A stretch of DNA of 64,000 nucleotides from assembly GCA_900199595.1 (NCBI GenBank), contig FZRB01000021.1, positions 17,668-81,667 of the forward strand, in the 5' to 3' direction. A model generated the notes under the pieces. That model made no database searches. It was not told where the DNA came from and was given only the letters and a program-made list of their open reading frames with translations. A program made the position numbers and the translations under genes. Below are positions 27,562 to 62,050 of the stretch, piece by piece (the first letter of the stretch is position 1; the number at the start of each line of letters is the position of its first letter). The stretch comes from Lachnospiraceae bacterium. Its GTDB lineage: Bacteria; Bacillota; Clostridia; Lachnospirales; Lachnospiraceae.

Positions 27562-27595
27562 TGTTGGACATCTGTTGGACAGTCTTCATTATAAT
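27562..27595 (+). promoter_or_regulatory. SARP-type promoter, class B, before regulator 2
   Basis: TGTTGGAC (27562-27569), ATC, TGTTGGAC (27573-27580), 9 nt, TATAAT (27590-27595). The repeats have an 11-bp period and no -35 hexamer stands 17 nt before the -10, the pattern of an activator-dependent SARP promoter. It is identical in geometry to 31832-31865. Confidence 0.75.
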
Positions 27596-27628
27596 TCCCT
27601 ACGAAGAATAACATTCCAGGGAGTTGTA

Positions 27629-28399
27629 ATGAAGGCTGTTTTAGTTGATGACGAAAAACTGGGTCTGGATTATCTCGAAACCCTTTGTAGTAACATACCT
27701 GTTCTGAACGATATCAAAAGTTTCACCCGTTCTAAAAATGCGTATAAATGGTGTGAGGATAATCCTGTAGATATAATTATACTTGATATTAATATGCCTG
27801 ATATTAATGGAATAACTCTCGTAACTAAGTTAAGAGAGATAAAACCTGATATCAGGGTTATTTTTGTTACTGCTTATGAGAAGTATGCTCTGGATGCATT
27901 TGGAGTTCATGCAGACGGTTATCTCCTTAAACCGGTTAATCAGGAGAATTTGACGAAAGAAGTAGAGTATGCTCTGTCAGACGTTAATGTAAATGCTCCC
28001 AATCATATAGTGGTGAAGACCTTTGGTGACTTTGAGGTTCTGGTGGATGGTGAACCGGTTACATTTTCAAGATCAAAATCCAAGGAGCTTTTTGCCTACC
28101 TTATAGACAGACAGGGCAGAGCAGTAAACAGAGCCAATATATTTTCAATACTGTGGGAAGACGGTGTGTATGACAGATCCAAGCAGAAACAGCTGGATGT
28201 TATAATAAGAAGTCTTAAGTCCACACTTCAGAAATGTGGTATAAGTGAGATACTGGAAATGCATAGCGGTTCTATAAGGGTACGAACGGAACTTATTAAC
28301 TGCGATATGTATAAATATCTGGAAGGTGACAAGGAAGCACAGAACAGTTATCAGGGGACATATATGACCCCATACAGCTGGGCAAGCTTCTCAGGTTAA
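27629..28399 (+). CDS. SARP-like response regulator 2
   Basis: A 256-residue paralogue of regulator 1 with the same order: receiver (DD at 7-8, Asp53 in IILDINMP, Lys in LLKPVN), winged helix (FGDFEVLVDGEPVTFSRSKSKELFAYLID) and short tail with YQGTYMTPYSWAS. An upstream in-frame Met at 27575 lies before the predicted -10 (27590-27595), so the start is 27629, behind AGGGAG. Its own promoter carries the TGTTGGAC repeats, so it may be autoregulated or controlled by a sibling. Confidence 0.86.
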   Translation: MKAVLVDDEKLGLDYLETLCSNIPVLNDIKSFTRSKNAYKWCEDNPVDIIILDINMPDINGITLVTKLREIKPDIRVIFVTAYEKYALDAFGVHADGYLLKPVNQENLTKEVEYALSDVNVNAPNHIVVKTFGDFEVLVDGEPVTFSRSKSKELFAYLIDRQGRAVNRANIFSILWEDGVYDRSKQKQLDVIIRSLKSTLQKCGISEILEMHSGSIRVRTELINCDMYKYLEGDKEAQNSYQGTYMTPYSWASFSG

Positions 28400-28414
28400 A
28401 AAGGAGGGTTACAT

Positions 28415-29209
28415 ATGGTTACAATTTCAGTAGATGATCAGCCGAAGGTATCTGAGGAAATCATAAAGATTATGTCAGAGATAGACCCGGGCGGAACACA
28501 CACAGGCTATTCTGACATAAACCAGGCACTTGCTTACGTAAAAGAGAATAAGCCGGAAGTGGCATGGCTTGATATAGAAATGCCGGTTATGTCGGGACTT
28601 GAGCTGGCCATGGAGGTTAAGAAAGTCTCTCCTATGACCAATATCGTTTTTGTCACAGGTCATGAGAAGTTTGCATACCAGTCCTTTCAGCTTCATGCCA
28701 GCGGTTTCGTATTAAAGCCTGTAACAAAAGAAGCTATCGAAAGAGAACTGGGTAATCTCAGAAATCCTGTGGAGATAAAAAAGAATGGTCTTATAAGGAT
28801 TCAGTGCTTCGGTAACTTCGAGGTATTTGATAAGGACGGTAATCCTCTTAAATTCAGAAGAAGCAGGAGTAAGGAAATACTTGCTTATATGATAGACAGG
28901 CGTGGAGCTCTCTGTACCATAGGTGAACTCTGTGGAATTCTCTTTGAGGACAGAGAAGAGGACAGAGGACTTAAGAAGCAGATCAGAGTATTTATAGCAG
29001 GATTAAGAGATGCTCTCGGAAGTGTTGGAGCAGAGTCAATCCTTGTAAAGGGGTGGGATTCCTGTGGTATAGACACCTCTTTGGTAGACTGCGATTATTA
29101 TGATTATTTAAAGGGTGACAGTGTTGCTGTCAATTCCTTTATGGGTGAATATATGACACAGTACTCATGGTCAGAGATGACACTGGGTGAGTTAATAATG
29201 AAACCATAG
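28415..29209 (+). CDS. SARP-like response regulator 3
   Basis: A 264-residue, more diverged member of the trio. The receiver has SVDDQ (7-8), Asp53 in AWLDIEMP and Lys in VLKPVT. The winged helix has FGNFEVFDKDGNPLKFRRSRSKEILAYMID, and the tail ends in GEYMTQYSWSE. It begins 15 nt after regulator 2 with AAAGGAGGG, so they share a transcript. Like its siblings it keeps only the start of a BTAD domain. Confidence 0.85.
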   Translation: MVTISVDDQPKVSEEIIKIMSEIDPGGTHTGYSDINQALAYVKENKPEVAWLDIEMPVMSGLELAMEVKKVSPMTNIVFVTGHEKFAYQSFQLHASGFVLKPVTKEAIERELGNLRNPVEIKKNGLIRIQCFGNFEVFDKDGNPLKFRRSRSKEILAYMIDRRGALCTIGELCGILFEDREEDRGLKKQIRVFIAGLRDALGSVGAESILVKGWDSCGIDTSLVDCDYYDYLKGDSVAVNSFMGEYMTQYSWSEMTLGELIMKP

Positions 29210-29243
29210 TTGCTTCAAATAGTAACATATCCAAGGTGTTAAT

Positions 29244-29933
29244 ATGAAAGACAATATCGATCTAAAAGTTCTCCGGGCCCTTCCATACGCCGTTTTCACC
29301 ATGTTTATTTCTATCATGTTTAGTATGGCCGGCCTGATTGTCAGGATAATAACCTCCGGCAGCGTGTCGGACTCCGCTCTGTATCAGATGGACAGTAATA
29401 TCTATATGATATGCTATTTTATCATGTATGTTGCTGTTGTTCTTATCATGTCCTTTCTTTACGAAATGTCCAATATATCCAAGTGGTTTGGCTATGCATG
29501 CACTACAACGTTGGTATTTATTCTCTCGGAGACAGTAGATTTTGTTGTCAGGTGGGCTGTTAGATATATTGATAACTATATGATCAAGATGGCATTGGTT
29601 GTTATATCAGAAATCATTCCGTCGCTCTGTATAGTTTTCCTTGTTATATTTATTCTGCATGGGATGATCGAACTGTACATGTTAATGGATAAAGAGAAGA
29701 AGGCTTTAAAATGTAAACGTTTCAGGGTGTACTGCATTATAGCCTTTGCTCTTCAGATACTTCTCAGCGCCCTTGCTTCTGCAAGTAATCAGAATAACAG
29801 GATTTTTATATTCTTTATAGTAACCGCGGGAGCTATCTACATATTTAATTTGATCATTATTTATTTCTTATATGGCAGGATAAAAACATTCTGCTATGAT
29901 TTTTATCTATATTCATACAACAGCGGGAGGTAG
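29244..29933 (+). CDS. Multi-pass membrane protein of the regulatory block
   Basis: I do not recognise a family. The 229-residue protein has about six hydrophobic helices (roughly 12-38, 53-72, 80-100, 112-145, 160-180, 190-212) and short charged ends, with no catalytic motif. It starts 34 nt after regulator 3 and stops 4 nt before a LytS-type kinase, so it is probably translated with that kinase and may be its membrane sensor or modulator. It resembles the membrane half of LytS-type kinases in layout but is a separate, intact frame. Confidence 0.7.
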   Translation: MKDNIDLKVLRALPYAVFTMFISIMFSMAGLIVRIITSGSVSDSALYQMDSNIYMICYFIMYVAVVLIMSFLYEMSNISKWFGYACTTTLVFILSETVDFVVRWAVRYIDNYMIKMALVVISEIIPSLCIVFLVIFILHGMIELYMLMDKEKKALKCKRFRVYCIIAFALQILLSALASASNQNNRIFIFFIVTAGAIYIFNLIIIYFLYGRIKTFCYDFYLYSYNSGR

Positions 29934-29937
29934 AGGC

Positions 29938-31143
29938 TTGAGAAGTATTTTCAGTTCGGCTTTTCTGATCGAAATGACTAACAAAATATTCATACTCGTT
30001 TCTATTCTTCTGGCGACAGTTGTTCTTATAGTGGCCTATAATATGAAGAACCATAACAGAAGGATGAGATATTTCCTTGGAAGTATAGCATTTGCCCTTG
30101 GAGGACTGATGCTTCAGATAGGCGGTTATACCAAGTATGCTTATGCCATGTATTCGCTGGCGGCGCCTGTTTTTACTCTTTACTTTATAGAGACAGAGCG
30201 CGACGACGAAGGAAATAGCTGGGACGGTTTTTTTTGGATGTCCCTCCAGTGTCTGGCGGCTGTGCTTTCTGTAATAATGGTTATTTTTACCGGCCGTGGT
30301 AATCTTGCGTTTCTCATTCAATTCTTAATAGTAATAATCATGCTCCTCTTCTCCTCGAAGGACCTGAAGTCTTCAATTGGCTTCCTTATAGGGAGTATAT
30401 TTCCCGTATCAGCCTGCCTTGCAGGTCTTCTGAATAAGGATCTGAGGCTGATGGGCTTTGGTATTATTATGCTTCAGCTGATAGTTTTCTTCAGTTACCA
30501 GTACGATCTCGAGCGTGAGCTTATGAAAAATCAGGTCGAACTGTCCGAAAATAAAGTGGCGCTGCTTATGGAGCAGATGCACCCGCATTTCATATATAAT
30601 GCTCTACAGCAGATAGCTCTTCTCTGTGATGAGGACCCTTCGGCGGTGAAACCGTCTATCTTCAGCTTCTCAGCATACCTTAGGAAGAATCTTGAGGCTC
30701 TTACAAATGAGAAGATGATTCCTTTCCTTACAGAAATGGAGCATGTTGATGCGTATGTTGAGTTGTCACAGATACTTCCGTCCAGGAAATTTGAACTCGT
30801 TAAAGATTTTCAGATAACAGATTTCTATATTCCGGCCCTTACAGTGCAGCCTTTAGTGGAAAATGCTATCTATTATGGCATAGGTATGAGCGAGGAAGGA
30901 AATGTAATCCGTCTTGAAACTAAGCTCGAGGACGGTTATGTGATAGTCCGTGTTTCTGATGACGGGCACGGAAAAAGGACCAGTCTGCCGACGCAGAAAA
31001 AGCATAATAGTGTGGGTACAAAGAACGTAATTACCCGTCTGAAGATACTTTGTGACGGAGAATTTATACTGAATAAGTCGGATAATGGTTCCGAGGCAAT
31101 TATAAAAATCCCCGAATTTAGGGCGGTTGCGGGCGATAAATAA
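29938..31143 (+). CDS. LytS-type sensor histidine kinase 2
   Basis: A 401-residue kinase. About six membrane helices occupy residues 1-190, followed by the His_kinase domain with EQMHPHFIYNAL (His217) and HATPase_c (PALTVQPLVENAIYYG, VSDDGHG, GTKNVITRLKILC). The start is TTG at 29938, six bases after GGGAGGT; the longer in-frame ATG (29896) overlaps the preceding gene and has no ribosome site. With two kinases and three SARP-like regulators in 6 kb, cross-talk among them is likely. Confidence 0.88.
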   Translation: MRSIFSSAFLIEMTNKIFILVSILLATVVLIVAYNMKNHNRRMRYFLGSIAFALGGLMLQIGGYTKYAYAMYSLAAPVFTLYFIETERDDEGNSWDGFFWMSLQCLAAVLSVIMVIFTGRGNLAFLIQFLIVIIMLLFSSKDLKSSIGFLIGSIFPVSACLAGLLNKDLRLMGFGIIMLQLIVFFSYQYDLERELMKNQVELSENKVALLMEQMHPHFIYNALQQIALLCDEDPSAVKPSIFSFSAYLRKNLEALTNEKMIPFLTEMEHVDAYVELSQILPSRKFELVKDFQITDFYIPALTVQPLVENAIYYGIGMSEEGNVIRLETKLEDGYVIVRVSDDGHGKRTSLPTQKKHNSVGTKNVITRLKILCDGEFILNKSDNGSEAIIKIPEFRAVAGDK

Positions 31144-31178: not shown

Positions 31179-31212
31179 TGTTGCACTTTTGTTGCGCCCT
31201 TAGTGATATAGT
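31179..31212 (+). promoter_or_regulatory. SARP-type promoter, class A, before the pilin gene
   Basis: TGTTGCAC (31179-31186), TTT, TGTTGCGC (31190-31197), 9 nt, TATAGT (31207-31212). The same layout and base identity recur at 43455 and 62017. It drives the VirB2-like gene at 31284. Confidence 0.75.
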
Positions 31213-31283: not shown

Positions 31284-31742
31284 ATGAGAAACAAAGTTAT
31301 GAAAATGGTAAAGGGATTTACATCTAATCCAAAGGCTGTTATGGCAGCTAAGATCGTAGCAACAGCTATCGTGGCAGCAATCGGAGCGATCGCATACAGC
31401 ACAGGCGCTTTTGCAGCAGGTGAGGTTGGAGCAGACTTCTCAGGAGTTACAAGCCCAATCGTAGGACTTATCAATTCACTTGTTAATCCGTTACTTGCAA
31501 TCGTAGGAGCAGGCGGAACTATCTTCTGCATATTCCTCGGTGTTAAGTTCGCTACAGCTGAAGAGCCACAGGAGAAGGAAAAGAGAAAGCAGGCACTTAA
31601 GACAGCCATCATCGGTTTCTTCCTTATATTCGTACTTATGGCAGCACTTAAGCTTTCAATCAAGCCTATGACTGACTGGTATCAGGCAGCTACAGTTAGC
31701 ACAAACAGCACACAGGCTCCTACAGAAGCTGAAACGAAGTAA
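31284..31742 (+). CDS. VirB2/TrbC-like pilin subunit
   Basis: A 152-residue small membrane protein. A long leader of about 45 residues ends in a signal-peptidase-like site (STGAFA before AGEVGADF). Two hydrophobic helices follow (about 58-88, with GLINSLVNPLLAIVGAGG, and about 103-122), separated by a charged cytoplasmic loop EEPQEKEKRKQALK. The tail is Thr/Ala-rich. This is the layout of VirB2-type and Maff2/Mbov_0395-like T4SS pilins of Gram-positive elements. AGGAGG precedes the ATG. It is monocistronic between a SARP-type promoter and a terminator, consistent with high, separate expression of a structural subunit. Confidence 0.8.
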   Translation: MRNKVMKMVKGFTSNPKAVMAAKIVATAIVAAIGAIAYSTGAFAAGEVGADFSGVTSPIVGLINSLVNPLLAIVGAGGTIFCIFLGVKFATAEEPQEKEKRKQALKTAIIGFFLIFVLMAALKLSIKPMTDWYQAATVSTNSTQAPTEAETK

Positions 31743-31831: not shown

Positions 31832-31865
31832 TGTTGGACATTTGTTGGACTGGGTTTACTATAAT
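31832..31865 (+). promoter_or_regulatory. SARP-type promoter, class B, before the T4SS core operon
   Basis: TGTTGGAC (31832-31839), ATT, TGTTGGAC (31843-31850), 9 nt, TATAAT (31860-31865). It matches the promoter of regulator 2 in sequence and spacing. It should transcribe the VirD4, surface protein, VirB6, VirB3-VirB4 and STAS genes. Confidence 0.78.
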
Positions 31866-31953: not shown

Positions 31954-33981
31954 ATGAATACAAGAACAAAAGTCATACTATATATCTTTGTATTATTGCT
32001 TGTTTCTGCTTTATCAGGTTTTCTTATGCGATCAATCGGATCGATGATAACCGATACTCTGAGCGGAGAGGGCTACAAGGTTGATCTGAGCCTGTTTCTT
32101 CAGTGGAAGACATGGGCCTTAGGTGCAGTTGGTGCGTTCTTTGTATTTCTCATATGGGTTCTGTCCGGAAGCAATCTGGATTCGCTGCTTATGGAAAAAA
32201 GCGGAGGTATGCTGGGAACCAAGAAGGGTAAGCCGGACGTAGTTACCGGATCTCTTGAAAACAGCCGTTTTCTTACAGAAAAGGAAAGAGATAAGTACTT
32301 CCCTGAACATGTATACAGCGCACTCAATGGTGTTAAGAAGGATGGTATTCCGGTAAGAGCCGTACTTGATAAAAAGAATACACTTCAGGTTAATTTCTAT
32401 CCCGGTGCGCATTCACTTATCATCGGTGCTACCGGTTCCGGTAAAACAACCACATTCATCAATCCTATGATCCAGCTTCTGGGTGCTACTTCAGCCGGAA
32501 GTTCCATGATAATGACGGACCCTAAAGGAGAGCTTTTTGATCTTCATTCAAAGTTTCTGGTATCCAGAGGCTACAAGGTTCTTCTGCTGGATCTCCGTGA
32601 TACATATTCGTCATCCAGATGGAATCCTCTTGAGGGTATCTGGGATATGTATCAGGAATATGTTGATGCTGGTAAGGGTATCAAGTTCCACAAGGACAGC
32701 ATATCTGATTATCCGGATCTTAAGAAAATGGATGGAGACGGTGAACCCGGAAAGCCATGGGCTGAGTGGAGAGGAAATGCTTATGCAGATCTGACTCACT
32801 GCCAGGATGATGTATCTGTTACAAGACAGAGATTCTACGATGAGATGTATGAGGACTTAAACGACCTCATATCCGTTATATGTCCAATAGAAAATGAAAA
32901 GGATCCTGTATGGGAGAAGGGTGCCCGTTCAATCATAATGGCTACCTGTCTTGCCATGTTGGAGGATTCGGAAGATGAACGACTTGGAATGACCAAGGAT
33001 AAGTTCAACTTCTTCAATATAAGTAAAGCGCTTACGAACTCAGAAGAAGAGTTCCGTGCGTTAAAAGAATATTTCGAGGGAAGAAGTAAGCTGTCTCAGG
33101 CCTATACACTTTCACGTCAGGTTCTTTCAGCTGCAGATACAACACTTTCCTCATACATGTCAATTACATTTGATAAGCTGAATATGTTTAACGACCGTGG
33201 ACTCTGCGGTCTGACCTCAGCAACAGATGTGCAGGCTGAGAAGTTTGCTGATCAGCCTACAGCACTATTCATGAAGATACCTGATGAGAAGGATACACGT
33301 CATGGACTGGCGGCCGTATTTATTCTCTGTATGTATAAAGCACTTATCAAGGTGGCTTCAGCGAGAGAAGATCTGTCGCTTCCTAGAAATGTTTATTTCA
33401 TCCTTGATGAGTTTGGTAATATGCCGAAGATAGAGAAGTTCGACAAGATGATCACAGTTGGACGTTCCAGAAAGATATGGTTTAACATGGTTGTTCAGTC
33501 TTATTCACAGCTGAATAACGTTTATGGAGAGAAGGTTGCAGATATAGTTAAATCTAACTGTGGTATGAAGATGTTCATCGGTTCCAATGATATTGGAACC
33601 TGTGAAGAATTCTCGAAGCTCTGCGGTAATATGACAGTTCGTACTACTTCGACATCATCAAATGTAGGCTCCAAGGCGGGCGAGATGAATGTCTCCTCAC
33701 AGACCCAGGTAAGACCTCTTATCTATCCGAGTGAGCTACAGATGCTTAACAACAAGGAAAGTACAGGAAATGCGATTATCGTTACCTTCGGTAACTACCC
33801 GCTCAGAACCAAATATACACCGAGTTATCTGTGCCCGTATTATAAGATGGGCAGAATGAACATGGACGAGCTTCGTTCACATATGTTCAGAGCTGACGAA
33901 GTGTATTACGATCTGGATGAGAGAAACGAAATCGTTCTCGGTAAGTCCGAAGACGAAGGTGATATGGATCAAAGTGCATAG
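31954..33981 (+). CDS. VirD4/TraG-type coupling ATPase
   Basis: Inner-membrane ATPase that docks substrates at a T4SS. It is 675 residues with two N-terminal membrane helices (about 5-27 and 50-72) and a nucleotide-binding domain with Walker A GATGSGKT (158-165) and Walker B FILDEFGNM (Asp485). It includes the typical MIMTDPKGELFDLHS and KIWFNMVVQSYSQLNNVYG blocks and an all-alpha insertion. VirD4/TraG proteins select conjugative relaxosomes or effector proteins; no relaxase is encoded nearby, so protein export is a fair hypothesis. It is first in the T4SS core operon. Confidence 0.93.
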   Translation: MNTRTKVILYIFVLLLVSALSGFLMRSIGSMITDTLSGEGYKVDLSLFLQWKTWALGAVGAFFVFLIWVLSGSNLDSLLMEKSGGMLGTKKGKPDVVTGSLENSRFLTEKERDKYFPEHVYSALNGVKKDGIPVRAVLDKKNTLQVNFYPGAHSLIIGATGSGKTTTFINPMIQLLGATSAGSSMIMTDPKGELFDLHSKFLVSRGYKVLLLDLRDTYSSSRWNPLEGIWDMYQEYVDAGKGIKFHKDSISDYPDLKKMDGDGEPGKPWAEWRGNAYADLTHCQDDVSVTRQRFYDEMYEDLNDLISVICPIENEKDPVWEKGARSIIMATCLAMLEDSEDERLGMTKDKFNFFNISKALTNSEEEFRALKEYFEGRSKLSQAYTLSRQVLSAADTTLSSYMSITFDKLNMFNDRGLCGLTSATDVQAEKFADQPTALFMKIPDEKDTRHGLAAVFILCMYKALIKVASAREDLSLPRNVYFILDEFGNMPKIEKFDKMITVGRSRKIWFNMVVQSYSQLNNVYGEKVADIVKSNCGMKMFIGSNDIGTCEEFSKLCGNMTVRTTSTSSNVGSKAGEMNVSSQTQVRPLIYPSELQMLNNKESTGNAIIVTFGNYPLRTKYTPSYLCPYYKMGRMNMDELRSHMFRADEVYYDLDERNEIVLGKSEDEGDMDQSA

Positions 33982-34025: not shown

Positions 34026-35135
34026 ATGAGTCGATTAAAAACATACAATATGATAACCCGTAAAATCAGCCAAATAACACTGGCTTTCTTAGTTGCACTC
34101 ATTTTTACCATTGCTTTTTCATCAGAAAACAGCTCTTTGATAATAGATTCATTCGTTCCTGCAGTTCATGCTGCCGGTGAGGATGAAGAAGAAAACACAA
34201 GCTTTAAGGTGCAGGAAGACAGCACTGAGAGCTCAAAGTATAAGCCTGACGAGACAGGATTTGTTGATTATTCAGGTGATGTTGATATCTATACCGGTAA
34301 ACCGGTAGATGATAATGATGATAATACCAGGAATTCATACTATATAGCTATTAAGGATGGATCCACATATGATGCTGAGCACAGCATGTTTATATATACT
34401 CTGGAGAATGGTACATTTAGCTGCTCAGTATGTGACGGAATGGTTGTTACAAACCCCGTTTTACTCGAAAAAGAAGGAGAGTACAATGTTGCTCTTTATC
34501 GTAACGGTGTTAAGGTTGACGGGATTCCTGCCACAGTTACAGATCCGGGTTCATATGTAGTTATTACCTGGGACAATGAAAGTGAAAACCAGCTGATGTC
34601 CTTCCAGATAGTTGAAAAAGAAACCGGAAGGATCAATCAGTATATAATCCCTCAGGGCTTTACCATTAAAACAGTTTATCTTGATGGTGAACTTCAGAAG
34701 AACAGCTTCGGTTCTGTTGATATGACCAAGGAAGGCTATTACGAGATCTGTTACAGATGTTCTGCAACAGGAATAGATTATTATCTGAATGTAACTACGG
34801 ATCATACCCCTCCTGATGTTACATTTGAGGGAATTGACAGTAATTCAAAGGCAAAGGGTCCTGTTACTTTAAAGGGACTTCAGGAAGGAGATACAGTATA
34901 TATCCTTCTTAATAGTGACGAAACAGGAAAAATGAATTACCAGAACCAGATAACCAAGGAAGGTGAATATCACGTAACGGTTATGGATAAGGCCGGTAAT
35001 TCAATAAGCAGAGATTTTATAATTATGTTTTATCTGAACGTGAAGGGTGTATTTTTCCTTTCACTGATTGTAGTACTTATAATTGGAGTTTTGATAGCAC
35101 TTTATATTTCAAGAAAGAGATTGAGAGTAAGATAG
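34026..35135 (+). CDS. Membrane-anchored surface protein of the T4SS operon
   Basis: A 369-residue protein I cannot assign to a family. It has an N-terminal export segment (about 14-48, ending in VHAAG), an acidic linker and an extracellular part with beta-rich, bacterial Ig-like segments (DHTPPDVTFEGI, GPVTLKGLQEGDTVYILLNSDETG, GEYHVTVMDKAGNSISRDF). A single C-terminal membrane helix (about 338-362) is followed by RKRLRVR. The topology puts most of it outside the cell. One base separates its stop from the next ATG, so it is tightly coupled to the VirB6-like protein and probably part of the machine's outer structure. Confidence 0.75.
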   Translation: MSRLKTYNMITRKISQITLAFLVALIFTIAFSSENSSLIIDSFVPAVHAAGEDEEENTSFKVQEDSTESSKYKPDETGFVDYSGDVDIYTGKPVDDNDDNTRNSYYIAIKDGSTYDAEHSMFIYTLENGTFSCSVCDGMVVTNPVLLEKEGEYNVALYRNGVKVDGIPATVTDPGSYVVITWDNESENQLMSFQIVEKETGRINQYIIPQGFTIKTVYLDGELQKNSFGSVDMTKEGYYEICYRCSATGIDYYLNVTTDHTPPDVTFEGIDSNSKAKGPVTLKGLQEGDTVYILLNSDETGKMNYQNQITKEGEYHVTVMDKAGNSISRDFIIMFYLNVKGVFFLSLIVVLIIGVLIALYISRKRLRVR

Positions 35136-35136
35136 T

Positions 35137-38100
35137 ATGTTTGATGGCTTAATAGATACAGTGAAAGGCTGGATAGCCTCGTTTATAGAGTTCACTCTTT
35201 GGAGAATCTTCTGGTTCGTAGAGATAATGGTTGTCAAATTCGTTGGCTTTGTGGAAAGTATCATGGAGATATTTACTGGCGAAAGGACTGTTAAGTACAA
35301 TGATTCTGACAAGACACTTATTAATATATTCTTTGAACATGAATCTGTAAGAGGAATATATGGTGGAATGGCGTTAATAGGAATCGTATTCTGTTTTGTA
35401 TTCGCCATTATCTCGGTTATTAGAAGAGCGCTTGATCTGAGAGATAAGCAGCAGGGAGTAACAATGGGAATGATTCTTACGAATCTTCTTAAGAGTATTC
35501 TCATCATATCTAGTATGAATCTTATCATGCTTGTCGCTATAGAAACCACTAACAAGCTTGTTCAGCAGGTAAGCTGGACTATTCAGAATGGTGGTAACCT
35601 AGCGGTTGGTGGTGATACGATTACATTTACAAATGAACAATACGCTGCCATGGGCAGGATAATTAATACATTAGGTAACTATTCTTTGAATCCGTCATAT
35701 AAGTCCAGGTACAATCTGAACGCCTGCTATAATGATATCAGAGTGGATCTTAAGTATCTGGGTGACCAGGGAGTGTTTAATTTCCATTATCTTGAAGAGG
35801 ATCCGAAAACCGGAAAAACTATTCAATCCTGGCAGAGCCTGATGGAAAAGCTGGCGACGGCTTATGATTACAGCTCAGAAGTTCCTCTGGATTCCTACAA
35901 TGATGGTGTCATAAATGCTGTCACAGACTGTATGGAAATACTAAAAAAGAACCCGACAATGAAGGTTCATAAGAAATATAACAGAAAAGAAGAGGCATTT
36001 TCTCGGAAGAAAAAGGTTCCTATGGACAGAATTCTTTTCCTTGTAGGAACTATGGGGATAGACTCTAATAATGCGGCTGCAAGAAATAAGGAATACAACA
36101 AGAATCCAAGTTTCTTTGATAATGCGAGACTTCCGTTCTATTACGGAGAACAAGGATCGGATATATACAGTTATGATGATGTCAGAAAAGTATTTGATCC
36201 GAGCCCGTTTTATACAAATTATGTATTGGTATGGTTTTCAGGTCTTGCAATACTGAAGGAAATGCTGGTACTTATAGTAACCTGTTCAGTTAGAATATTT
36301 AACCTGCTTGCTCTTTATATAGCAGCGCCTCTGGCAATAGCAACTATGCCGATGGATGACGGTGGTAAATTCAAGCAGTGGACAACGGCGTTTATAGTAC
36401 AGCTTCTTACTATAGTAGGTATGGTTATAGCCATGAGACTTTTCCTGATGTTCATACCTATCATATGGAGTCCTGCGCTTAAAACATCTGATAATCCGCT
36501 ATTGGACTGTATAATAAAGATGGTAATTCAGTATGGTGCGGTGCTTTCGGTTAACAAGGTAAATGGTATCTTCACCGGAATCCTTGCTGATAATGCCGGA
36601 TTCCAGGCTATAACAGCCGGTGATGTAAGACAGAATGTTGAAAACGGTGCTGCTGGAAAGATGCTTTCAGGCATGGGCGCCGGTGCTATGGCAGAGAAAG
36701 CTTTTGGTAAGGGAAGGGCCGCGCTTGGCAAACAGATAGGAAAGCACAGTTCAAAGGCTGCATATCTTACTGATGCGATTGGTCTTACAGAGGGCGCCTA
36801 CGAGGGCAGTAAAGACAGGCAGAACAAAGAAGATGATAAGAAAGCCGGTAAGGCTCGTAAGAATATGAGAGATGCTAATAAGCTTGAACAGGATCTTGAT
36901 TCCATGAAGAAACATGGTCAGCATCTTGATGGTACTAAACCAAAGAACGAGAAAGATAAGAAGAACCAGATTAAGAAGATGGAAAACACTCTCAAGTACA
37001 TGAAGGCCGGTAATGGTCAGACGAGTCTTAAGGATGCCAAGAGAATGGCTGAGCGTGACATGAAAGAGGATAAGATGGATCAGCAGCAACAGGGCGAAAT
37101 CGAAGCTATGAAGCTCAAGAATCCACCTCCAAAGAGACAGCCGGGAGCTACTAAGAAAAATGATGAAGTCAGCAAACCAGGCAGCAGACCAGGATCAGGA
37201 GGCGGACCAGGAAGTGGACCGGCACCTACACCAGGATATGGACCAGGACCGGCACCAGGACCAGCGCCAGGACCTATACCAGATGGTTCCGAAGGTGAAC
37301 AAGATCTTCCAAACAGACAGGAAGTGGAAAGTGGCGGAACAGGAGAAAATAACAATACTAATACTCCTGGTGGTGAAGGTACGAATATCAACACTAATCA
37401 GCCTGAAGATCTGAATCAGACTAATCAGGGAACTCAGGTAGGTGATGCACCACCTGGAGTTGATAATAATGCTACACCAGGAACTGATCAGAACAATACC
37501 ACCAATACCAATACCAATACCGGTACTCAGCAGCCTCCGTTTGGAACACCTAATCAGAATAGTGGACCACACATAGGCGGTGGAGACGATGATGACGATG
37601 ATGATGAAGTACCATTCAATCAGTCAAATCAGAATACACAGGTAGGTGGTAATCCGACAAATTTTAACCAGACGTCGACTGGAATGATGAACGATCAGAA
37701 TAATACAGCTCAGTCGACGAATTATACCCAGACGAATCCGACGGCTAATACTCAGGGTGGCCCTCAGCCTAATCTGAATCAGCCGAATCAGTTCCAGCAG
37801 GTGGGTGGAACTCCGCAGATGAACACAAACAATCCGCAGATGAATACAAACAATCCGCAGATGAACACAAACAATCCGCAGATGAACACAAACAATCCGC
37901 AGATGAACACAAACAATCAGCAGATGAACACAAACAATCCGCAGATGAACATGAACAACCCGCAGATGAACATGAACAACCCGCAGATGAACGTGAATAA
38001 TCCGCAGATGAACATGAACAACCCGCAGATGAACACTAACAATATAAACATTAATAACACAAATACATCGACGGGAAACGTAAATTATGATCCTATGGGT

Positions 38101-38157
38101 GGAAATCAGTATAATCCAATGGGAAATAATAACCCTACGGGAACAAACACCCCCTAA
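35137..38157 (+). CDS. TrbL/VirB6-like channel protein with Asn/Gln-rich repeat tail
   Basis: A 1006-residue protein. The N-terminal ~500 residues contain about six membrane helices (about 15-40, 72-98, 110-140, 370-410, 420-450, 465-490), with charged loops, as in polytopic VirB6/TrbL/PrgH-like proteins. Residues ~500-660 form a basic, helical cytoplasmic stretch (NMRDANKLEQDLDSMKKHG). Residues 670-1006 are disordered: a Pro/Gly run, an Asp6 tract, and Asn/Gln/Thr-rich sequence with eleven PQMNxNN heptads. The tail is much longer than in known VirB6 proteins. The function of the tail is unknown; condensate or protein-binding roles are speculation. Confidence 0.82.
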   Translation: MFDGLIDTVKGWIASFIEFTLWRIFWFVEIMVVKFVGFVESIMEIFTGERTVKYNDSDKTLINIFFEHESVRGIYGGMALIGIVFCFVFAIISVIRRALDLRDKQQGVTMGMILTNLLKSILIISSMNLIMLVAIETTNKLVQQVSWTIQNGGNLAVGGDTITFTNEQYAAMGRIINTLGNYSLNPSYKSRYNLNACYNDIRVDLKYLGDQGVFNFHYLEEDPKTGKTIQSWQSLMEKLATAYDYSSEVPLDSYNDGVINAVTDCMEILKKNPTMKVHKKYNRKEEAFSRKKKVPMDRILFLVGTMGIDSNNAAARNKEYNKNPSFFDNARLPFYYGEQGSDIYSYDDVRKVFDPSPFYTNYVLVWFSGLAILKEMLVLIVTCSVRIFNLLALYIAAPLAIATMPMDDGGKFKQWTTAFIVQLLTIVGMVIAMRLFLMFIPIIWSPALKTSDNPLLDCIIKMVIQYGAVLSVNKVNGIFTGILADNAGFQAITAGDVRQNVENGAAGKMLSGMGAGAMAEKAFGKGRAALGKQIGKHSSKAAYLTDAIGLTEGAYEGSKDRQNKEDDKKAGKARKNMRDANKLEQDLDSMKKHGQHLDGTKPKNEKDKKNQIKKMENTLKYMKAGNGQTSLKDAKRMAERDMKEDKMDQQQQGEIEAMKLKNPPPKRQPGATKKNDEVSKPGSRPGSGGGPGSGPAPTPGYGPGPAPGPAPGPIPDGSEGEQDLPNRQEVESGGTGENNNTNTPGGEGTNINTNQPEDLNQTNQGTQVGDAPPGVDNNATPGTDQNNTTNTNTNTGTQQPPFGTPNQNSGPHIGGGDDDDDDDEVPFNQSNQNTQVGGNPTNFNQTSTGMMNDQNNTAQSTNYTQTNPTANTQGGPQPNLNQPNQFQQVGGTPQMNTNNPQMNTNNPQMNTNNPQMNTNNPQMNTNNQQMNTNNPQMNMNNPQMNMNNPQMNVNNPQMNMNNPQMNTNNININNTNTSTGNVNYDPMGGNQYNPMGNNNPTGTNTP
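37813..38043 (+). repeat. 11 x 21-bp coding tandem repeat
   Basis: Eleven consecutive 21-bp units encode (P/Q)QMN(T/M/V)NN. The first six are almost identical at DNA level and the last five have diverged at the fifth codon. Copy number could vary by slippage without breaking the frame. Confidence 0.95.
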
Positions 38158-38246: not shown

Positions 38247-41200
38247 ATGAGATTAATACCAGGAAAAACTAAAGTAAAGATTGAGGTATTCAAGCACATA
38301 ACATTAGCCGACATAATCGTCGGCCTTATTGGCTTAGTTGCTGTTACCTTATGCGCAGTTTCATCTCTGCCCGGACGCTGGATAATAGCCGGAATCGTGG
38401 CGGCTGTTTTTGCGTTACTCCTTTTCAGACTTGATGATGAACCGCTGTATGTCTTCATGTGGAATATGATGAAGTATTTTGCATATCCTAGAAGACTTGT
38501 TCGTGTATACGATGATAAGGCGATAAAGAATATATCCAAGGGAGACAGACAGGCAATCCTGGATGATTTCTTTGGCGAGGAGAATGGAGAAGGAGCAGAA
38601 AAGTCAGAGACTGCTGCTGAGACTTCAGCCCCAAAAGTTTCGCAGGTATCCGTAAATGAAGATGAGGATGTATCATTTAATGATATGTTTTCAGAAGAAT
38701 CAGAAGAAGGATCCGAGTCAGAGGAAGACTATGAGTCTGAGGGACCTGAGGCTGCTCCCGAATCAGAATATACGGAAGAAACAGAAACATCGGTAGAAGT
38801 AGAAAAAGCAGAAGAGTCAGAAGAGGCGGATTCATATATCGATGCTCTTGAAAAACAGGACAAAATAAATGAAGAGCTGAAAGAGATACAGAAGGATAAG
38901 AAGGCAGAAAAGAAACGTCTCAAACAGCTTATAAAGGAAGAAAATAAGATACTTAAGAGCAAGACTGCAACACCTGAAGAAAAGGATGCAGTCTGGCTTG
39001 CGAGGGCTGAAAGAAGCGCTGAAAAGAAAAAGGAAAAAGTTGAAAATAAGGAACAGGATGCTTCTTATGAGGAAATGAGTGACTTTATTCCTTTTACAGG
39101 AATAAGTGATAATTGTATCGACTATAACGGACAGTATTATGGTTCGGTTATTGAGATAGATCCAATAGCTTTCAGATTCTTCTCAGAGCATAGACGTAAC
39201 AACTCAATTGAGAGTTGTCTTGGAAAGATTCTCAGAGGTCTTACAGGAGACTATGGCGCAAATATCGTAAAGATACAGCGTCCGATCATGTATGATGCTC
39301 ATCTTGATGCAGAGTATGATAAGCTGGATGCACTTAAAAAATCCTACGAGAGTGGACTTCTTACAGAAGAAGAACTCCAGGCCAGAGTTGAGATACAGTA
39401 TGATCGTATAAATGAAGTACAGCTTCTTTGTAATGAAGACAGAGTTATAGATCCTTTCTATTATCTCGTACTTTTTGAGTCAGATAAGAGAAGACTGGAT
39501 ACATTTACCAGACAGGCTATCATGACTCTTGAGCAGGGCGAGATGATCGTAAGAAGACTTGATAACAAGGGGCTTGCGCTTTTCCTGAAGTACACAAATC
39601 ATCTTGATTTTGATGAAAGAGAAATAGATGACATAGCAGAAGATCAGTGGGTTAACTGGGCTATGCCTCAGAGCCTTAAGTTTAGTATGAGAACTGCAGT
39701 AGTAGATGGTATCATAACTCATAACATGAGAGTTATATCCTTCCCTACTGTTGTTGGAGATTCATGGCTTGCAGGAGTTATGTCCTTCCCAAGTACAAAG
39801 GTTGTAGTTAAAGCGACCCCTATGGACAGAACGAAGGCTATTAAGTCTATCGACCGTTCGCTTGCTGAACTACGAGGACAGTATATGTCCACCAGTATCG
39901 ATTCAAAGATGATCGAACTGCAGGAGCATATTACCACACTGTCATCGCTTCTGGTTACTCTTCAGCAGGACAACGAAGCACTGCTTTCAGTAAATATATA
40001 CATAACAGCCTATGATGCTATGATGACCGCCAATGATCCTGTTCTTTCTCAGGACTTCAACACCATGATGCCATACGTGGCAGACATGAAGAAGACTCTG
40101 AAGAGAAACTGGAGTGAAGAAGGCATGAAACTGTCCGGAATGGACTTCCTTCAGATACAGAGTTTTATAGGTTCACAGATTTCCGCATATGATCCTATGC
40201 TTAAGGATGCCAGGGGAATTCCATCGAACACAATTGCCGGAATGTTTCCTTGGATTTTTGCGCATACATCTGATGTTGGTGGTATACAGCTCGGTTCATC
40301 CGACAGCGTACCTGTATTTATAGATTTCTTCAAGAGAAATGAAGAACGTGTAAATTCCAATATGGTTATCGTAGGTAAGTCCGGTTCCGGTAAATCCTAC
40401 GCTACCAAGTCACTTCTTACAAACCTTGCTTCAGAGGATGCAAAGATATTTATTCTCGATCCTGAGAACGAGTATTCACAGCTTGCTCATACTCTTCATG
40501 GTAAGGTAATAAATGTAGGAAATGCAAAGTTTGGACGACTGAATCCGTTCCATATTATAACTGCTCTCGATGATGATGAGGCGGGAACAGAGGGCGGCGG
40601 CCCTGGTGGAAGCTTTGCTACACATCTTCAGTTCCTGGAAGAGTTCTTCAGACAGATACTTCCTGATATCGATAAGGAAGCTCTGGAGTACCTCAATTCA
40701 CTGGTTGAGAGAGTATATCTTAATTTCGGAATCACTCCGGACACGGATCTGTCAGGCTTTACAGCTGATGATTATCCTATATTTGATGATCTCTATGATG
40801 TAATCCTTGCAGAGTTTGAAAGAACAAACAACGAGTACCTGAGAAATCTTCTCAGATCTCTCGTTAACTATATATCCAAATTCTCAACAGGCGGTCGAAA
40901 TGCAAATATCTGGAACGGACCTTCTACAGTTACCACAGAAGAGAACTTCTCGGTATTTAACTTCCAGTCTATGCTTGCGAACAGAAACTCAACTATCGCA
41001 AATGCACAGATGCTGCTTGTACTGAAGTATGTGGATAACGAGATAATTAAGAATAGAGATTACAATACAAAGTATGGTCTTAACAGAAAGATCGTAGTTG
41101 TAATCGATGAGGCCCATGTATTTATCGATACCAAGTTCCCTATAGCCCTGGACTTTATGTTCCAGCTGGCTAAGCGTATCCGTAAGTATAACGGTATGCA

Positions 41201-46600: not shown

Positions 46601-49600
46601 ATTACGGTGAGTTGAAGGGTGTCAGAATTATTCCGGAACAGAATTCCGATGATTCAGAGCCTTTTGATAAGCTGAATATAGAAAAGATAACTATTTCAGA
46701 AGAAAATAATGGTGGCTGCTATACATCATACATAGTTAATGATGTAGGTTGGATAGAAATTGATTACCATGATGAACTCGAATCTGTCAAGCCAGGTGGT
46801 CAGAAGGCCAGAACTGCAAATGAGTTATCAAAGATATACAAGATTGCTGATAAGCAGAAGAATGTCAAGCTTGTTTGTGAGATAGCTGCAGAACCATGGT
46901 CAGGTGATTATGATCAGTTTATAGGGTCTATGAAGGCAGAGATTCTTTATACAAAAGAGTCTACAGGATTGCAGGAACCTATTACAGTAGATGTGGTTCA
47001 GTGTATGGCTAACTACATGAAGACAAATGTAAAATCACTTGAGACGGATCCGGATCCTGATAAACAGATTATTAAGGAAGCAGGTCTTGGTACACTGTCT
47101 GATCAGAATTATATGTTCAGACCTAATCATACTGACCGTTTGCTCCTGCCGGCTATTCCGGACTTAAGATCAATAGACAGTATCACATTTACAGGACAGA
47201 ATCTCGGTAAATATGCCGGTGCATGGTGTGTTAAGAATATATCAGTACTTCAGGTTGTAGAGGATGGAGCTGTTCAGCTTACAACCAATGGTGAGCTATA
47301 CAGAAATATCAGCTACAGAAGAGTTTGTACGAGTACAAATGCTGAAACAGTTGAGAAACACTGGACTATTGGTGGAAAGAACAGCTTAGGACCTATTGAA
47401 TTTACATCAAACAGAATCATATGGAATGAGGAGGATGACTGGGCAACTCCGGTATCCAGACTTCCGGATTCAACTGATGATAAGATAAATATGTTTATTT
47501 ATCCGCAGGTTGGTTCTAAAAATGAAAATGGTGCATCTGTAAATGCAACACTTAAATATAATATTCCATTCTCACAGTATAAGACACTGTCACAGAAGGA
47601 TCTGACGCTTACTAAAGATGCGAGCGGAAGAGATATGTATATGGTTAAGGATCTTAATGCACCTGATTTCTTAAGTGCACTTGACTTTACAGTATACTGT
47701 AAGAGCTCGATGATATTTGACTATGCGATAATTCAGCATGTCCGAGAGGGAACTATAATCAGTAATTACTGCTATAACTTTATTGGTGCATCCGCGGAGC
47801 GAGGTGCAACCGGATTTGCAGAAACAACAGGAAAGTATCTGGATTCAACAGATGAGCACTTTGCTATAGGGCTTGGTGCCGGAACAAAGGAGAAAATACT
47901 TTCAGCTGAGAAGATAGATATGGCTGTATCCTTTGATTATAAGTCATCACTTGATGGTGCAACATATCAGTCGCCATATGTATATCTTACAGATCAGGGT
48001 TATACTAAAACTGAAGAGGGACTTTCAGCAGAACTTGACTTTGATGTTCCATTCGTAAAAGAGATAACTGCTTATCATATAGCAGGCTATGGATCACTGG
48101 AAGCAAATGTTTCCGGTGCAGCAGCTGTGACCTACGAAGTTCAGAAAGAGATGAATCAGGTTACAGCTCAGATGGAGGTCAAAGGAAGAAAGAGAAGAAG
48201 CTATGCTTCATTTAATGATGCGTTTGCTATTACTGATAAGGTGCAAAATCCTAAGAGAACTTCTGAATCGGCCTTCGGCGAAAACAGTGTGGCTGTATTT
48301 GAGATGAAGATTACCACATTGGAATCCACTGCAATGAAAGATACAGGAACCAAAGCATCTGTAAGGATGAAGTTCCATTATAATGACTATAAGGGAGTGG
48401 AAAAGCCTGATGTTGAGTATGAGGATATCACCCAGTATATTCAGGGTAGTGCAAAAGAATCCACAGAAAGCTCACAGGATCAGACAATTGAAGAAAGAGA
48501 GAAGAAGAATCGTTCAGCTAAACAGTTCTTCTCAGGTGAGACACAGTCAGTTAAGGTTTACCTTAATGATTTAAATGAAAATAAAATAATCAAGAGTCTG
48601 GATATTCTTCCATACAATAATAATATTGAAATAAAGGATGAGGATGCCCAGGTAGCCGATGATGTAGATGATAAGTCTACTGAGAAAACACTTGCAGAAG
48701 CTACAGGAGACGGAAAAGAGGCAGATACATCAACTAAGAAGAAGGATAATCTGGCAAATAAGATCATCGACAGCAGAAACGAATCCTGGACCATTAAGGA
48801 TTTCTATGGTTACTACATGGGTTACGATGAAGAGGTTGATGATATAATCAAGAAGCCTGGCGTAAATAAGACATTTGACGGACTTGATAATGGTGGCACA
48901 CTTACTCTTATGAACGTAACACTTCGTACAACCTTTAAGAAGAATAATGAGAGTGAACAGACAGTAAAAGATAATCTTGCTACTATATATGCTGAGAAGG
49001 GTGATAAGATCTCCGGATCGGTTATAGCAAGAGCAGGTAACAAGCCTTCAGACTTTGAAATAAAGGCATCCCTTATGATTGGTGATGCACCTAAGGATGT
49101 TACAAAAGAAACGATTAAGCTGTCGGATAAGTTCTACTTCACATTTACGACGCCTAGAAATACTTCTAATGATGTAGTGGTTTATAAGCTGGAGATAAGT
49201 GTTAAGGATGCACCGGAATATGTGGATACAATTCTTGTAAATGTTCCGAACTCTGATGCTATCAAGCTGACCACCACTATAGCAAAAAATGAAGAGCAGC
49301 CAATCAAGGTTGAATATGGTATGGAGCAGATCTGGGCTGATGAAGGAGATACTATTTTTGGTTCTGTAGTTATAGAATCAGAAAAGAAGCTTGGCTTTAC
49401 TGTAAATGCTTCTCTTGTAAGTGATAAGGAAACAGATGTTTCGAAGGATACCTTAAAGAAGACAGATGATTATCACTTTGAGTTTAAGGTGCCTAAGACG
49501 AGTGAAGGAAAGACCCGTACCTATAAGATAAAGGTTGCAGCAGTGGAAGATCCGGAACTTTACGACACTATAGTAGTCAGCATAACAGGTAAGGAAAAGG

Positions 49601-60982: not shown

Positions 60983-60987
60983 GAAAT

Positions 60988-61013
60988 GTCATTCTGAGCG
61001 AAATGAAGAATCC
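60988..61013 (+). repeat. Dispersed repeat GTCATTCTGAGCG..GAAGAATCC (copy 4)
   Basis: Near-consensus copy between the two paralogous genes, ending 19 nt before the ATG at 61032, with GAGAGG between. Confidence 0.75.
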
Positions 61014-61031
61014 ATGGATTGAGAGGAATTT

Positions 61032-62012
61032 ATGAAGAAGAAAGTATTATTAATCATTATAATTGTTATAGCACTACTGGCGATTGCTGCAGGTGTGATC
61101 ATTTCAGTCCTGAATGCAAAGCAGTATACCAAGTTATTCCAGGATACGGATTATCCAGTATGCTATAAAATAAAGGATGGAAATATTATCCTGACAGTAA
61201 AGGATAATACAAAGAGGACTGAGGCATGGGAAGCTTCTGCTGAAGATCCGGACTATGTGACCATCACACCGAAGGGCAAGGTATCTGCTAAGAAGGCAAC
61301 CTATATCATATCTCCAGCTTCAGTCGGAGTTACTAATGTTATATTTTCAAAGTCCATTCAGGGTGGCAAACTTAAAGTGGACTATGTAAAACTTACCTTT
61401 GGTACCTATGTTTATGAGACTATGGAAGGTCTGAAGTGTACATTTATAGATACAGGATCGCTTGAATACGGTAAGGATATAATTGGGGCAGGCACGGATC
61501 ATCCGATAATTCTCAGCCCTGAGGCTGATCCAAGTTATGATTATATGATTGATGAAGTATCCTCTGCTACCAATGCCCGAAATGCGGCTGAGGAAGAAAA
61601 GCTCATGAAGGGACACATCGACTTTATAAATGGTCGTGGTGACTGGGAAGTAAAATCAGATACAGAATGTGTTGATGTTATTTATTCCGGTGATTCAGGC
61701 AGAGAATACATAAATCTTTCCTATATAGCGGGACATGAAGGAGGTTTGATAGAAGATTCTGTAACAGAAGAGGATGACAATGATCCGGAGAAAGCGCCTC
61801 TTGCTACTAATACAGAACCAAGCTGGGAAGGTGCAGCAATATTTGAAGATATGAATCAGGTGGTTGAAGTGAATACAGAGACAGATGCAAAAGAGATGAC
61901 GGGGGAAGCTGTTCTCACATTCACCAGCCAGAGTCTGGGAATCACCGAGCAGAGAAAGGTAACCTTCTACAAGGATGGACATGTGGATTTTTCAGCAGTG
62001 AATGAAAAATAA
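61032..62012 (+). CDS. Membrane-anchored extracytoplasmic protein B
   Basis: 326 residues, same plan as the preceding gene: Lys-rich start, membrane helix (about 4-26), then DYPVCYKIKDGNIILTVKD, KGKVSAKKATYIISPASVGVTNVIFSKS, a linker, and a second domain with GHIDFINGRGDWEVKSD matching GDIFFPNGKGDWTLESP in protein A. An acidic insert lies near 235-280. The pair clearly arose by duplication. Their place between the T4SS operons suggests surface components. Function unknown. Confidence 0.7.
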   Translation: MKKKVLLIIIIVIALLAIAAGVIISVLNAKQYTKLFQDTDYPVCYKIKDGNIILTVKDNTKRTEAWEASAEDPDYVTITPKGKVSAKKATYIISPASVGVTNVIFSKSIQGGKLKVDYVKLTFGTYVYETMEGLKCTFIDTGSLEYGKDIIGAGTDHPIILSPEADPSYDYMIDEVSSATNARNAAEEEKLMKGHIDFINGRGDWEVKSDTECVDVIYSGDSGREYINLSYIAGHEGGLIEDSVTEEDDNDPEKAPLATNTEPSWEGAAIFEDMNQVVEVNTETDAKEMTGEAVLTFTSQSLGITEQRKVTFYKDGHVDFSAVNEK

Positions 62013-62016
62013 TGTG

Positions 62017-62050
62017 TGTTGCGCTTTTGTTGTGCATATAGTGTTAGAAT
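62017..62050 (+). promoter_or_regulatory. SARP-type promoter, class A, before the last secreted protein
   Basis: TGTTGCGC (62017-62024), TTT, TGTTGTGC (62028-62035), 9 nt, TAGAAT (62045-62050). It begins 5 nt after the upstream stop codon. Confidence 0.74.

What the first reader, a model, noticed from the sequence alone, without database searches (positions are those of the whole stretch)
27562..62050. Five promoters share an exact SARP-type operator: a T4SS regulon visible in the DNA
Promoters at 27562, 31179, 31832, 43455 and 62017 all have two direct TGTTG-based octamers with an 11-bp period, then 9 nt, then a TATAAT-like -10, and no -35 hexamer at 17 nt. They precede SARP-like regulator 2, the VirB2-like pilin, the T4SS core operon, the giant exported protein and the beta-helix protein. 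SARP activators are known to bind direct repeats of 11-bp period overlapping the -35, and three SARP-like regulators are encoded inside this block. The inference is a dedicated switch for the whole machine.
Basis: partly seen in the sequence, partly recalled or inferred. Interest (0 to 1): 0.95.

Follow-up and report, generated by a model that had tools for sequence, protein, structure and literature searches.

The report
Operator barcode of a secretion regulon
A short repeated DNA sequence, predicted to be a gene switch, occurs about forty times in the genome of a relative of the rumen bacterium Eubacterium ruminantium, in front of type IV secretion genes and of some thirty giant proteins that the secretion machine would likely deliver into other cells.

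Summary
The five sites are real: TGTTG-N6-TGTTG with a -10 hexamer at one fixed distance. They are the visible tip of a larger set. The whole genome holds 39 C-class sites (TGTTGCRCWTTTGTTRY-N11-TAnAAT, up to one mismatch) against 0 for the reversed pattern, and two G-class sites (TGTTGGAC repeats, up to one mismatch), both in the window. Of the 39, 32 precede ORFs of at least 580 aa, against 26 of 196 control genes. Thirty of these lack signal- or membrane-like stretches and have basic, hydrophilic C-termini, as many T4SS substrates do. In related genomes C sites track regulator R3 and G sites track R1/R2; a C site precedes the pilin in 29 of 30 loci. The regulators are not SARPs but OmpR/PhoB-type response regulators without a BTA domain. 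I infer a two-tier switch: R1 (G sites) turns on R2/R3 and, here, the VirD4 operon; R3 (C sites) turns on the pilin, surface proteins and about 30 candidate effectors. Binding, transcription starts and translocation are untested.

The parts
27562..27595 (+). G-class operator (TGTTGGAC x2) and -10 TATAAT, before R2
   Evidence: such a site stands before R2 or R3 in relatives
31179..31212 (+). C-class operator and -10 TATAGT, before the pilin
   Evidence: a C site stands before the pilin in 29 of 30 R3 loci
31832..31865 (+). G-class operator and -10 TATAAT, before VirD4 (T4SS core operon)
   Evidence: a G site also precedes VirD4 in L247, but not in the other loci seen
43455..43488 (+). C-class operator and -10 TATAAT, before the giant exported protein
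   Evidence: same place between STAS and giant in L188, L190, L195, L199, L205, i.e. 5 of 8 stretches that show STAS beside VirB4; absent in L196 and L201, stretch ends in L191
62017..62050 (+). C-class operator and -10 TAGAAT, before the exported protein at 62088
   Evidence: same arrangement in L204, L249, L250
25376..26725 (+). HK1, LytS-type histidine kinase
   Evidence: PF06580 1.7e-22, HATPase
26739..27557 (+). R1, receiver + winged-helix response regulator; likely reader of G sites
   Evidence: PF00072 1.4e-25, Trans_reg_C 25.2 bits against a cut-off of 26.2; OmpR-family model match over residues 9-218
27626..28399 (+). R2, paralog of R1 (ATG 27626 chosen; the TTG at 27575 lies inside the operator)
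   Evidence: (52% identical to R1)
28415..29209 (+). R3, response regulator; likely reader of C sites
   Evidence: PF00072 1.6e-17; orthologs at the T4SS locus; model resembles OmpR/PhoB regulators
29244..29933 (+). membrane protein (by eye) between R3 and HK2
   Evidence: a relative in 28 of 35 R3 loci; no Pfam
29896..31143 (+). HK2, LytS-type histidine kinase
   Evidence: PF06580 6e-15
31284..31742 (+). T4SS pilin
   Evidence: PF18895 2.3e-12; NF045849 49.5 bits, cut-off 40
31954..33981 (+). VirD4-type coupling protein
   Evidence: PF02534 6e-52
34026..35135 (+). conserved T4SS-locus protein
   Evidence: syntenic; no Pfam
35137..38157 (+). conserved T4SS-locus protein
   Evidence: syntenic; no Pfam
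38247..43103 (+). VirB4-type ATPase
   Evidence: PF19044 1.4e-16; NF045975 514.9 bits, under its cut-off of 590
43117..43419 (+). STAS anti-sigma antagonist-like protein
   Evidence: PF01740 1.1e-15
43696..50421 (+). giant exported protein, 2241 aa
   Evidence: signal-peptide-like N-terminus by eye; PLAT domain
62088..63923 (+). exported protein, 611 aa
   Evidence: signal-peptide-like N-terminus by eye; no Pfam

Best explanation
The five sites belong to a genome-wide set of about 41 predicted activator operators, in two sequence classes, that likely place a chromosomal type IV secretion system and about 30 large effector-like proteins under OmpR/PhoB-type response regulators encoded beside it. 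Inferred mechanism: two regulator molecules sit side by side on two direct repeats one helical turn apart and stand in for the missing -35 element, so that the main-sigma polymerase can use the -10. Tier 1 (inferred): R1, activated by HK1, reads G sites (TGTTGGAC) before R2/R3 and, in this genome, the VirD4 operon. Tier 2 (inferred): R3, activated by HK2, reads C sites (TGTTGCRC) before the pilin, the exported giants and the effector-like genes scattered over the genome. Shown: the sites, their spacing, the genes behind them and the co-occurrence. Not shown: binding, phosphorylation, transcription starts, translocation.
For: Spacing: 31 of 70 genome-wide TGTTGC...TTTGTT pairs have a gap of 3, at most 5 any other gap. 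Motif with -10: 40 hits in G000 against 0 reversed; 377 in 37 genus genomes against 2, and 3 in 24 other genomes of the order against 1. Pilin: C site within one mismatch in 29 of 30 R3 loci that hold a pilin. R3 against C sites: 17 genomes with R3 have 5-42, 20 without have 0-10, one-sided p = 3e-7. R1/R2 against G sites: 6 of 8 genomes with, 0 of 29 without, p = 1.2e-5. R1 and R2 form one clade and R3 another (100/99 and 100/100), with different putative recognition helices. Of 34 G-site rows examined, mostly in relatives, 17 have R2 or R3 as the next ORF, 1 VirD4, 1 HK1. Targets: 32 of 39 at least 580 aa against 26 of 196 controls, p = 4e-17; outside C43 and the window 11 of 16, p = 2.6e-6. 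Shared modules among targets; C-terminal 30 aa net charge +4.0 against +0.06; 0 of 30 with an N-terminal hydrophobic stretch against 68 of 176. Afs boxes and PHO boxes have 11-bp direct repeats (PMC10936776 passages; PMC4415409 passages), in both cases over the -35 (PMC3348028 passages).
Against: No binding or expression data. G036 (97% complete) has 10 C-class hits but no R3 ortholog, VirB4 or VirD4 hit; G012 (9 hits) and G022 (6) likewise, at 70-73% completeness. G005 keeps R3, the pilin and 5 C sites but has no VirB4 or VirD4 hit. G017 has an R1 relative but no G site within two mismatches; G018 has two degenerate G-like sites and no R1/R2 hit. Of the 34 G-site rows, 13 lead to other genes or to no ORF of 80 aa within 450 nt, and two more to CwlJ-like and o29244-like genes, so the G tier is not confined to regulators and T4SS. 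The C site between STAS and the giant protein is missing in L196 and L201. Seven of 39 C-class targets are small (116-309 aa, the pilin among them). The genomes are related, so the p-values overstate independence; counts include some G-class sites (4 in G023, as listed). Of 23 large proteins scanned, 22 have no Pfam hit above the curated cut-off, and a modelled one matches no solved fold (best E 0.03), so the effector role rests on regulation, tail composition and lack of export signals.
Confidence: 0.68

Rival explanations
1. The operator regulon is real, but the giant proteins are not secreted: they are intracellular or surface-assembly partners of the T4SS, or remains of mobile-element proteins, that share its regulator.
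For: No translocation evidence; almost no known domains; large multidomain 'polyvalent proteins' of phages and conjugative elements are described in PMC5512222 (only the start of the abstract seen).
Against: 0 of 30 have TM-like or signal-like stretches and the C-termini are strongly basic, as described for several T4SS substrates (PMC3297438 passages). Nineteen lie in one cluster (C43) but 11 on other contigs. One carries an ADP-ribosylglycohydrolase domain and three paralogs a weak Fam20C/PI-kinase-like segment.
Confidence: 0.25
2. One regulator, or another OmpR-family regulator outside the block, reads both classes; the G/C difference is only affinity tuning.
For: The two classes share TGTTG...TGTTG; the genome has 36 further, weaker matches to R2, mostly over its receiver part.
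Against: Only three close members of this subfamily turn up in the genome, all in the block; in the 11 genomes with R3 but without R1/R2, C sites are present and no G site is found within one mismatch; the clades differ in the putative recognition helix.
Confidence: 0.2
3. One reading: SARP activators and a switch confined to the T4SS block.
For: Direct repeats 11 bp apart with the 3' repeat 8 bp from the -10 are the SARP rule (PMC10936776); the regulators lie in the block.
Against: No BTAD hit, a receiver domain is present, and the matches over both domains are OmpR/PhoB regulators; 36 of 41 sites lie outside the window.
Confidence: 0.05
4. Chance or a dispersed repeat element copied in front of genes.
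For: Many near-identical copies.
Against: Only the operator and -10 are conserved and the flanks carry little information; the reversed pattern gives 0 in G000; orthologous pilin promoters keep the site.
Confidence: 0.02

Closest known systems
PhoB/PhoP-type PHO box (OmpR-family response regulators)
   Same: Two 11-nt direct repeats (PMC4415409 passages) over the -35 (PMC3348028 passages), read by a receiver + winged-helix regulator; R1 and R2 match this family over both domains, as does the R3 model.
   Different: Repeat sequence TGTTGSRC; paired with LytS-type kinases; a short C-terminal extension; the regulon is a secretion system with putative substrates.
SARP activators (AfsR and the afs box)
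   Same: 11-bp repeats, first 8 bp contacted, upstream repeat over the -35, 3' repeat 8 bp from the -10 (PMC10936776 passages).
   Different: SARPs are winged helix + BTA domain; here there is a receiver domain and no BTA domain hit.
Legionella PmrA and CpxR effector regulons
   Same: A two-component regulator that directly controls effector genes scattered over the genome (PmrA 42 genes; CpxR 26 genes plus 4 icm/dot genes), and, for LelB, a regulatory-element search that finds candidate effectors (PMC12239595 passages).
   Different: Here a Gram-positive T4SS, regulators encoded at the T4SS locus, two operator classes, and proteins that Pfam does not recognise.
Gram-positive and mycoplasma conjugative T4SS
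   Same: Pilin meets NF045849 (Mbov_0395 family); VirB4 resembles NF045975 below its cut-off.
   Different: No relaxase among the 34 window proteins scanned; metabolic genes upstream; conserved with a regulator/kinase pair and often a giant exported protein.

Membership tests
SARP | OmpR-type winged-helix DNA-binding domain | tested here: inconclusive
   Trans_reg_C 25.2 and 25.8 bits for R1 and R2, just under the cut-off of 26.2; no hit for R3; R3 model aligns with OmpR/PhoB regulators over both domains, but at TM-scores of 0.3-0.4
SARP | C-terminal BTA domain | tested here: not met
   No BTAD hit at E <= 0.001 in R1-R3; only about 40-55 residues follow the winged helix
SARP | 11-bp direct repeats, 3' repeat about 8 bp from the -10 | tested here: met
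   9 nt after the octamer; rule from PMC10936776; PHO boxes share the repeats, so not diagnostic
OmpR/PhoB response regulator | receiver domain with phospho-acceptor Asp plus winged helix | tested here: met
   PF00072 in R1-R3; D7, D8, D53, K101 invariant in 30 R3 rows (their roles recalled); R1 and R2 match family models over both domains
OmpR/PhoB response regulator | tandem binding to the direct repeats | not testable with these tools
   needs a binding assay
Type IV secretion system | VirB4 ATPase, VirD4 coupling protein and pilin together | tested here: met
   conserved order
Conjugation system | relaxase near the T4SS | tested here: inconclusive
   None among the 34 window proteins given to Pfam; not every ORF was scanned and the rest of the genome was not searched
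T4SS effector | basic/hydrophilic C-terminal signal, no Sec signal | tested here: met
   30 proteins against 176 controls, by composition and hydropathy only; the signal itself was not assayed
T4SS effector | VirD4-dependent translocation | not testable with these tools
   experiment needed

The most novel reading that the evidence does not exclude
Rumen Firmicutes carry a Legionella-like, Gram-positive effector arsenal: a chromosomal T4SS with 30 to more than 40 giant mosaic effectors, some with kinase- or ADP-ribose-type chemistry, aimed at rumen protozoa or rival microbes and armed by a two-tier response-regulator cascade whose 19-bp operator is a barcode that lists the substrates across the genus.
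Probability: 0.4. Interest if true: 0.93.

Novelty: new variant of a known kind. Interest (0 to 1): 0.82.

Why it matters
If true, one DNA word lists the candidate substrates of a secretion system across a genus of rumen bacteria. The regulon gives about 30 candidates in this genome that domain libraries mostly do not recognise, and relatives with the same locus include named isolates (E. ruminantium FB3002, Lachnospiraceae NE2001 and others), so the idea can be tested. Protein delivery by Gram-positive T4SS is little explored (recalled). It also gives a clean case in which paralogous regulators appear to have split one operator into two.

Tried and rejected
SARP membership: rejected, no BTA domain hit. 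Dedicated alternative sigma factor: considered because STAS/HATPase pairs lie in the regulon; rejected because the -10 is TATAAT-like and the repeats end 9 nt from it, too close for a -35 (reasoning, not a test). Defence island: no PADLOC hit for the 9 large proteins tested at E <= 0.01. Known fold for one large protein (P0001, 6-row alignment, mean pLDDT 79): all-helical, best PDB E-value 0.03, no usable match. Wider family of that protein: 2 database hits for the whole protein, one of them 99% identical to it, and 6 (those 2 included) for its last 306 residues, none with a precomputed Pfam domain (one search scored only the 7992 candidates sharing most words). Spacing test on the fetched stretches (second part) was circular because the stretches had been chosen by the motif; replaced by the whole-genome test. 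Papers: 10 paper searches were answered (two found no paper); no title or abstract start among the listed rows names this operator or an effector set of this genus. That is all that stands behind 'not in print', in an open-licence library. Of PMC10936776, PMC4415409, PMC3348028, PMC12239595 and PMC3297438 I saw found passages only; of PMC5512222 the listing only.
Full report
CHECK. The five sites are present as described. The repeat pair (one mismatch allowed) has 4 matches in the window and none in 100 shuffles of it. Two details need correcting: the octamer is exact in both halves at three sites only, and the sites form two classes, TGTTGGAC (27562, 31832) and TGTTGCRC (31179, 43455, 62017).

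GENOME SCAN. The window lies at C9:17668-81667 of a 3.49-Mb draft genome. TGTTG-N6-TGTTG followed by a -10 gives 18 hits against 1 reversed control. Without a -10 requirement there are 23 repeat pairs against 2 controls; 18 are of type TGTTGC or TGTTGGAC, and 17 of those have TANNNT at exactly the same distance. A relaxed C-class pattern with at most one mismatch gives 40 hits against 0 controls in G000: 39 C-class sites plus the G-class site at 31832. With the gap between half-sites left free (0-25), 31 of 70 matches have a gap of 3 and no other gap has more than 5. The profile of the 39 sites adds information that was not asked for: A at the third-last and second-last positions of the -10 (72% each), T then G two and one bases before the base that precedes the -10 (49% and 51%), and only T or C after the second TGTTR.

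TARGETS. Of the 39 C-class sites, 32 precede an ORF of at least 580 aa; in control genes of the other fetched stretches (C43 and the window left out) the figure is 26 of 196 (Fisher p = 4e-17). Outside the C43 cluster and the window it is 11 of 16 (p = 2.6e-6). Two of the 32 are the exported proteins of the window; the other 30 are called effector-like here. C43:5-135 kb holds 34 ORFs of at least 580 aa, 19 with their own site; by the coordinates, 14 of the other 15 start within 200 bp of a same-strand gene and could be operon members (one of these 14 looks exported). The targets share modules in mosaic fashion. By simple hydropathy windows none of the 30 has a signal-like N-terminus or TM-like stretch (68 and 74 of 176 controls do), and the last 30 residues carry net charge +4.0 against +0.06. 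This fits the C-terminal, positively charged signals described for several T4SS (PMC3297438, passages). Of 23 large proteins scanned (two or more of them operon neighbours rather than direct targets), one has a Pfam hit above its cut-off, an ADP-ribosylglycohydrolase (2.8e-37); three paralogs show a weak Fam20C or PI3/PI4-kinase-like segment, each below the curated cut-off, in which GN.DR...N and IDN are invariant (the reading as kinase motifs is recalled). Sites of other kinds: a STAS-HATPase pair (C3:36459), a HAD-like protein (C2:104368, name recalled from its sequence), and a few small proteins.

RELATIVES. In 37 genomes of the genus the pattern gives 377 hits against 2 controls; in 24 other genomes of the order, 3 against 1. 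VirB4 is found in 15 of the 37, VirD4 in 15, R3 orthologs (67% identity or more) in 17. Genomes with R3 have 5 to 42 C hits; of the 20 without, 17 have 0-3 and three have 6, 9 and 10 (G022, G012, G036; the first two are 70-73% complete, G036 is 97%). G-class sites within one mismatch occur in 6 of 8 genomes with an R1/R2-class regulator (48% identity or more to R2) and in 0 of 29 without. Eleven genomes with R3 but no R1/R2 have C sites and no G-class site (the one hit at two mismatches, in G011, is C-like). G014 has R1, a G site, no R3 and no C site, but is 80% complete. G017 has an R1 relative and no G site; G018 two degenerate G-like sites and no R1/R2 hit.

Named loci: 35 R3 orthologs at 62-81% identity come from Lachnospiraceae and Eubacterium records, many of them rumen MAGs, among them Eubacterium ruminantium FB3002 and isolates NE2001, YSB2008, C6A11, AC2029 and AC2031 (37 rows, two distant ones, L278 and L279, left out). 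The order R3 - membrane protein - HK2 - [C site] - pilin - VirD4 - two conserved genes - VirB4 recurs with variations (the membrane protein is recognised in 28 of 35; HK2 precedes R3 in L272 and L274). A C site between STAS and the giant protein is seen in 5 of 8 stretches that show STAS beside VirB4 (absent in L196 and L201, stretch ends in L191). A C site within one mismatch precedes the pilin in 29 of 30 loci that contain it; the last has it at two mismatches; 5 loci hold no pilin.

Of 34 G-site rows (30 loci looked at, some of them the same genome twice; up to two mismatches), the next ORF is R2 in 10 rows (8 loci: L190, L204, L206, L247, L249, L250, L251, L276), R3 in 7 (L198, L201, L254, L258, L261, L270, L273), VirD4 in L247, HK1 in L210, a CwlJ-like gene in L252 and the membrane protein in L249; the other 13 rows lead to other genes (several exported proteins) or to no ORF of 80 aa within 450 nt.

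REGULATORS. R1-R3 are the only close members of their subfamily found in the genome (E 1e-48 or better; the next is 1e-16). They are receiver proteins with an OmpR-like winged helix; R1 and R2 match OmpR-family models over both domains, and the R3 model (mean pLDDT 79, pTM 0.53, residues 240-264 below 50) matches VanR, BaeR, PhoP, DrrB and KdpE over both domains, at TM-scores of 0.3-0.4, so the domain arrangement is uncertain. No SARP is named in the 50 rows listed. The tree separates R3 (37 rows, 100/100) from R1+R2 (20 rows, 100/99). The putative recognition helix is near YDR..QKQ.DVIIRSL in R1/R2 and near ALKKQLRVFLSSL in R3 (the helix was assigned by analogy). That split parallels TGTTGGAC against TGTTGCRC.

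MECHANISM. In AfsR two protomers bind two 11-bp repeats, the upstream one over the -35, touch the first 8 bp of each, and give sigma region 4 a substitute docking point (PMC10936776, passages). PHO boxes have the same repeat architecture (PMC4415409, passages) and PhoB sites overlap the -35 (PMC3348028, passages). The geometry here is the same, so activation by replacing the -35 is the natural inference for all 41 sites. G sites before R2, R3 and (here and in L247) the VirD4 operon, and C sites before pilin, surface proteins and effector-like genes, suggest a cascade: commit first, then arm.

LIMITS. All of this is sequence evidence. Target genes were assigned mechanically (longest same-strand ORF within 450 nt). 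The recipient of any delivered protein is unknown.

Noticed in passing
L001 (G000 C2:104368), L079, L091: Between the C site and the next gene L079 and L091 share a short leader ORF fragment (reading YAITAPFLRI in both), possibly a small RNA or peptide; L001 carries the same kind of site before a similar stretch.
   Followed up: no
window 43117-43419 and 51252-51752; L050 6569-7504; L049 8529-9286: STAS and HATPase_c_2-like proteins occur in the T4SS region (Pfam) and, by sequence resemblance, behind other C-class sites: perhaps a partner-switch module inside the regulon.
   Followed up: partly
L249 9778-9807: Three tandem TGTTGGAC repeats at 11-bp period before R2.
   Followed up: no
L206, L247, L249: R2 is cut short after the receiver domain while R1, R3 and a G site remain.
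   Followed up: partly
L049 3682-4336: Two small proteins with a near-identical leader ending DELDSVVGG just upstream of the C2 site, resembling double-glycine peptide precursors (recalled).
   Followed up: no
L206 (G005): A genome with R1, R3, HK2 and the pilin but no VirB4 or VirD4 hit and a degenerate G site: apparent decay of the system.
   Followed up: partly
L058 13307-13873: A stretch of N (masked) inside the cluster of giant genes.
   Followed up: no
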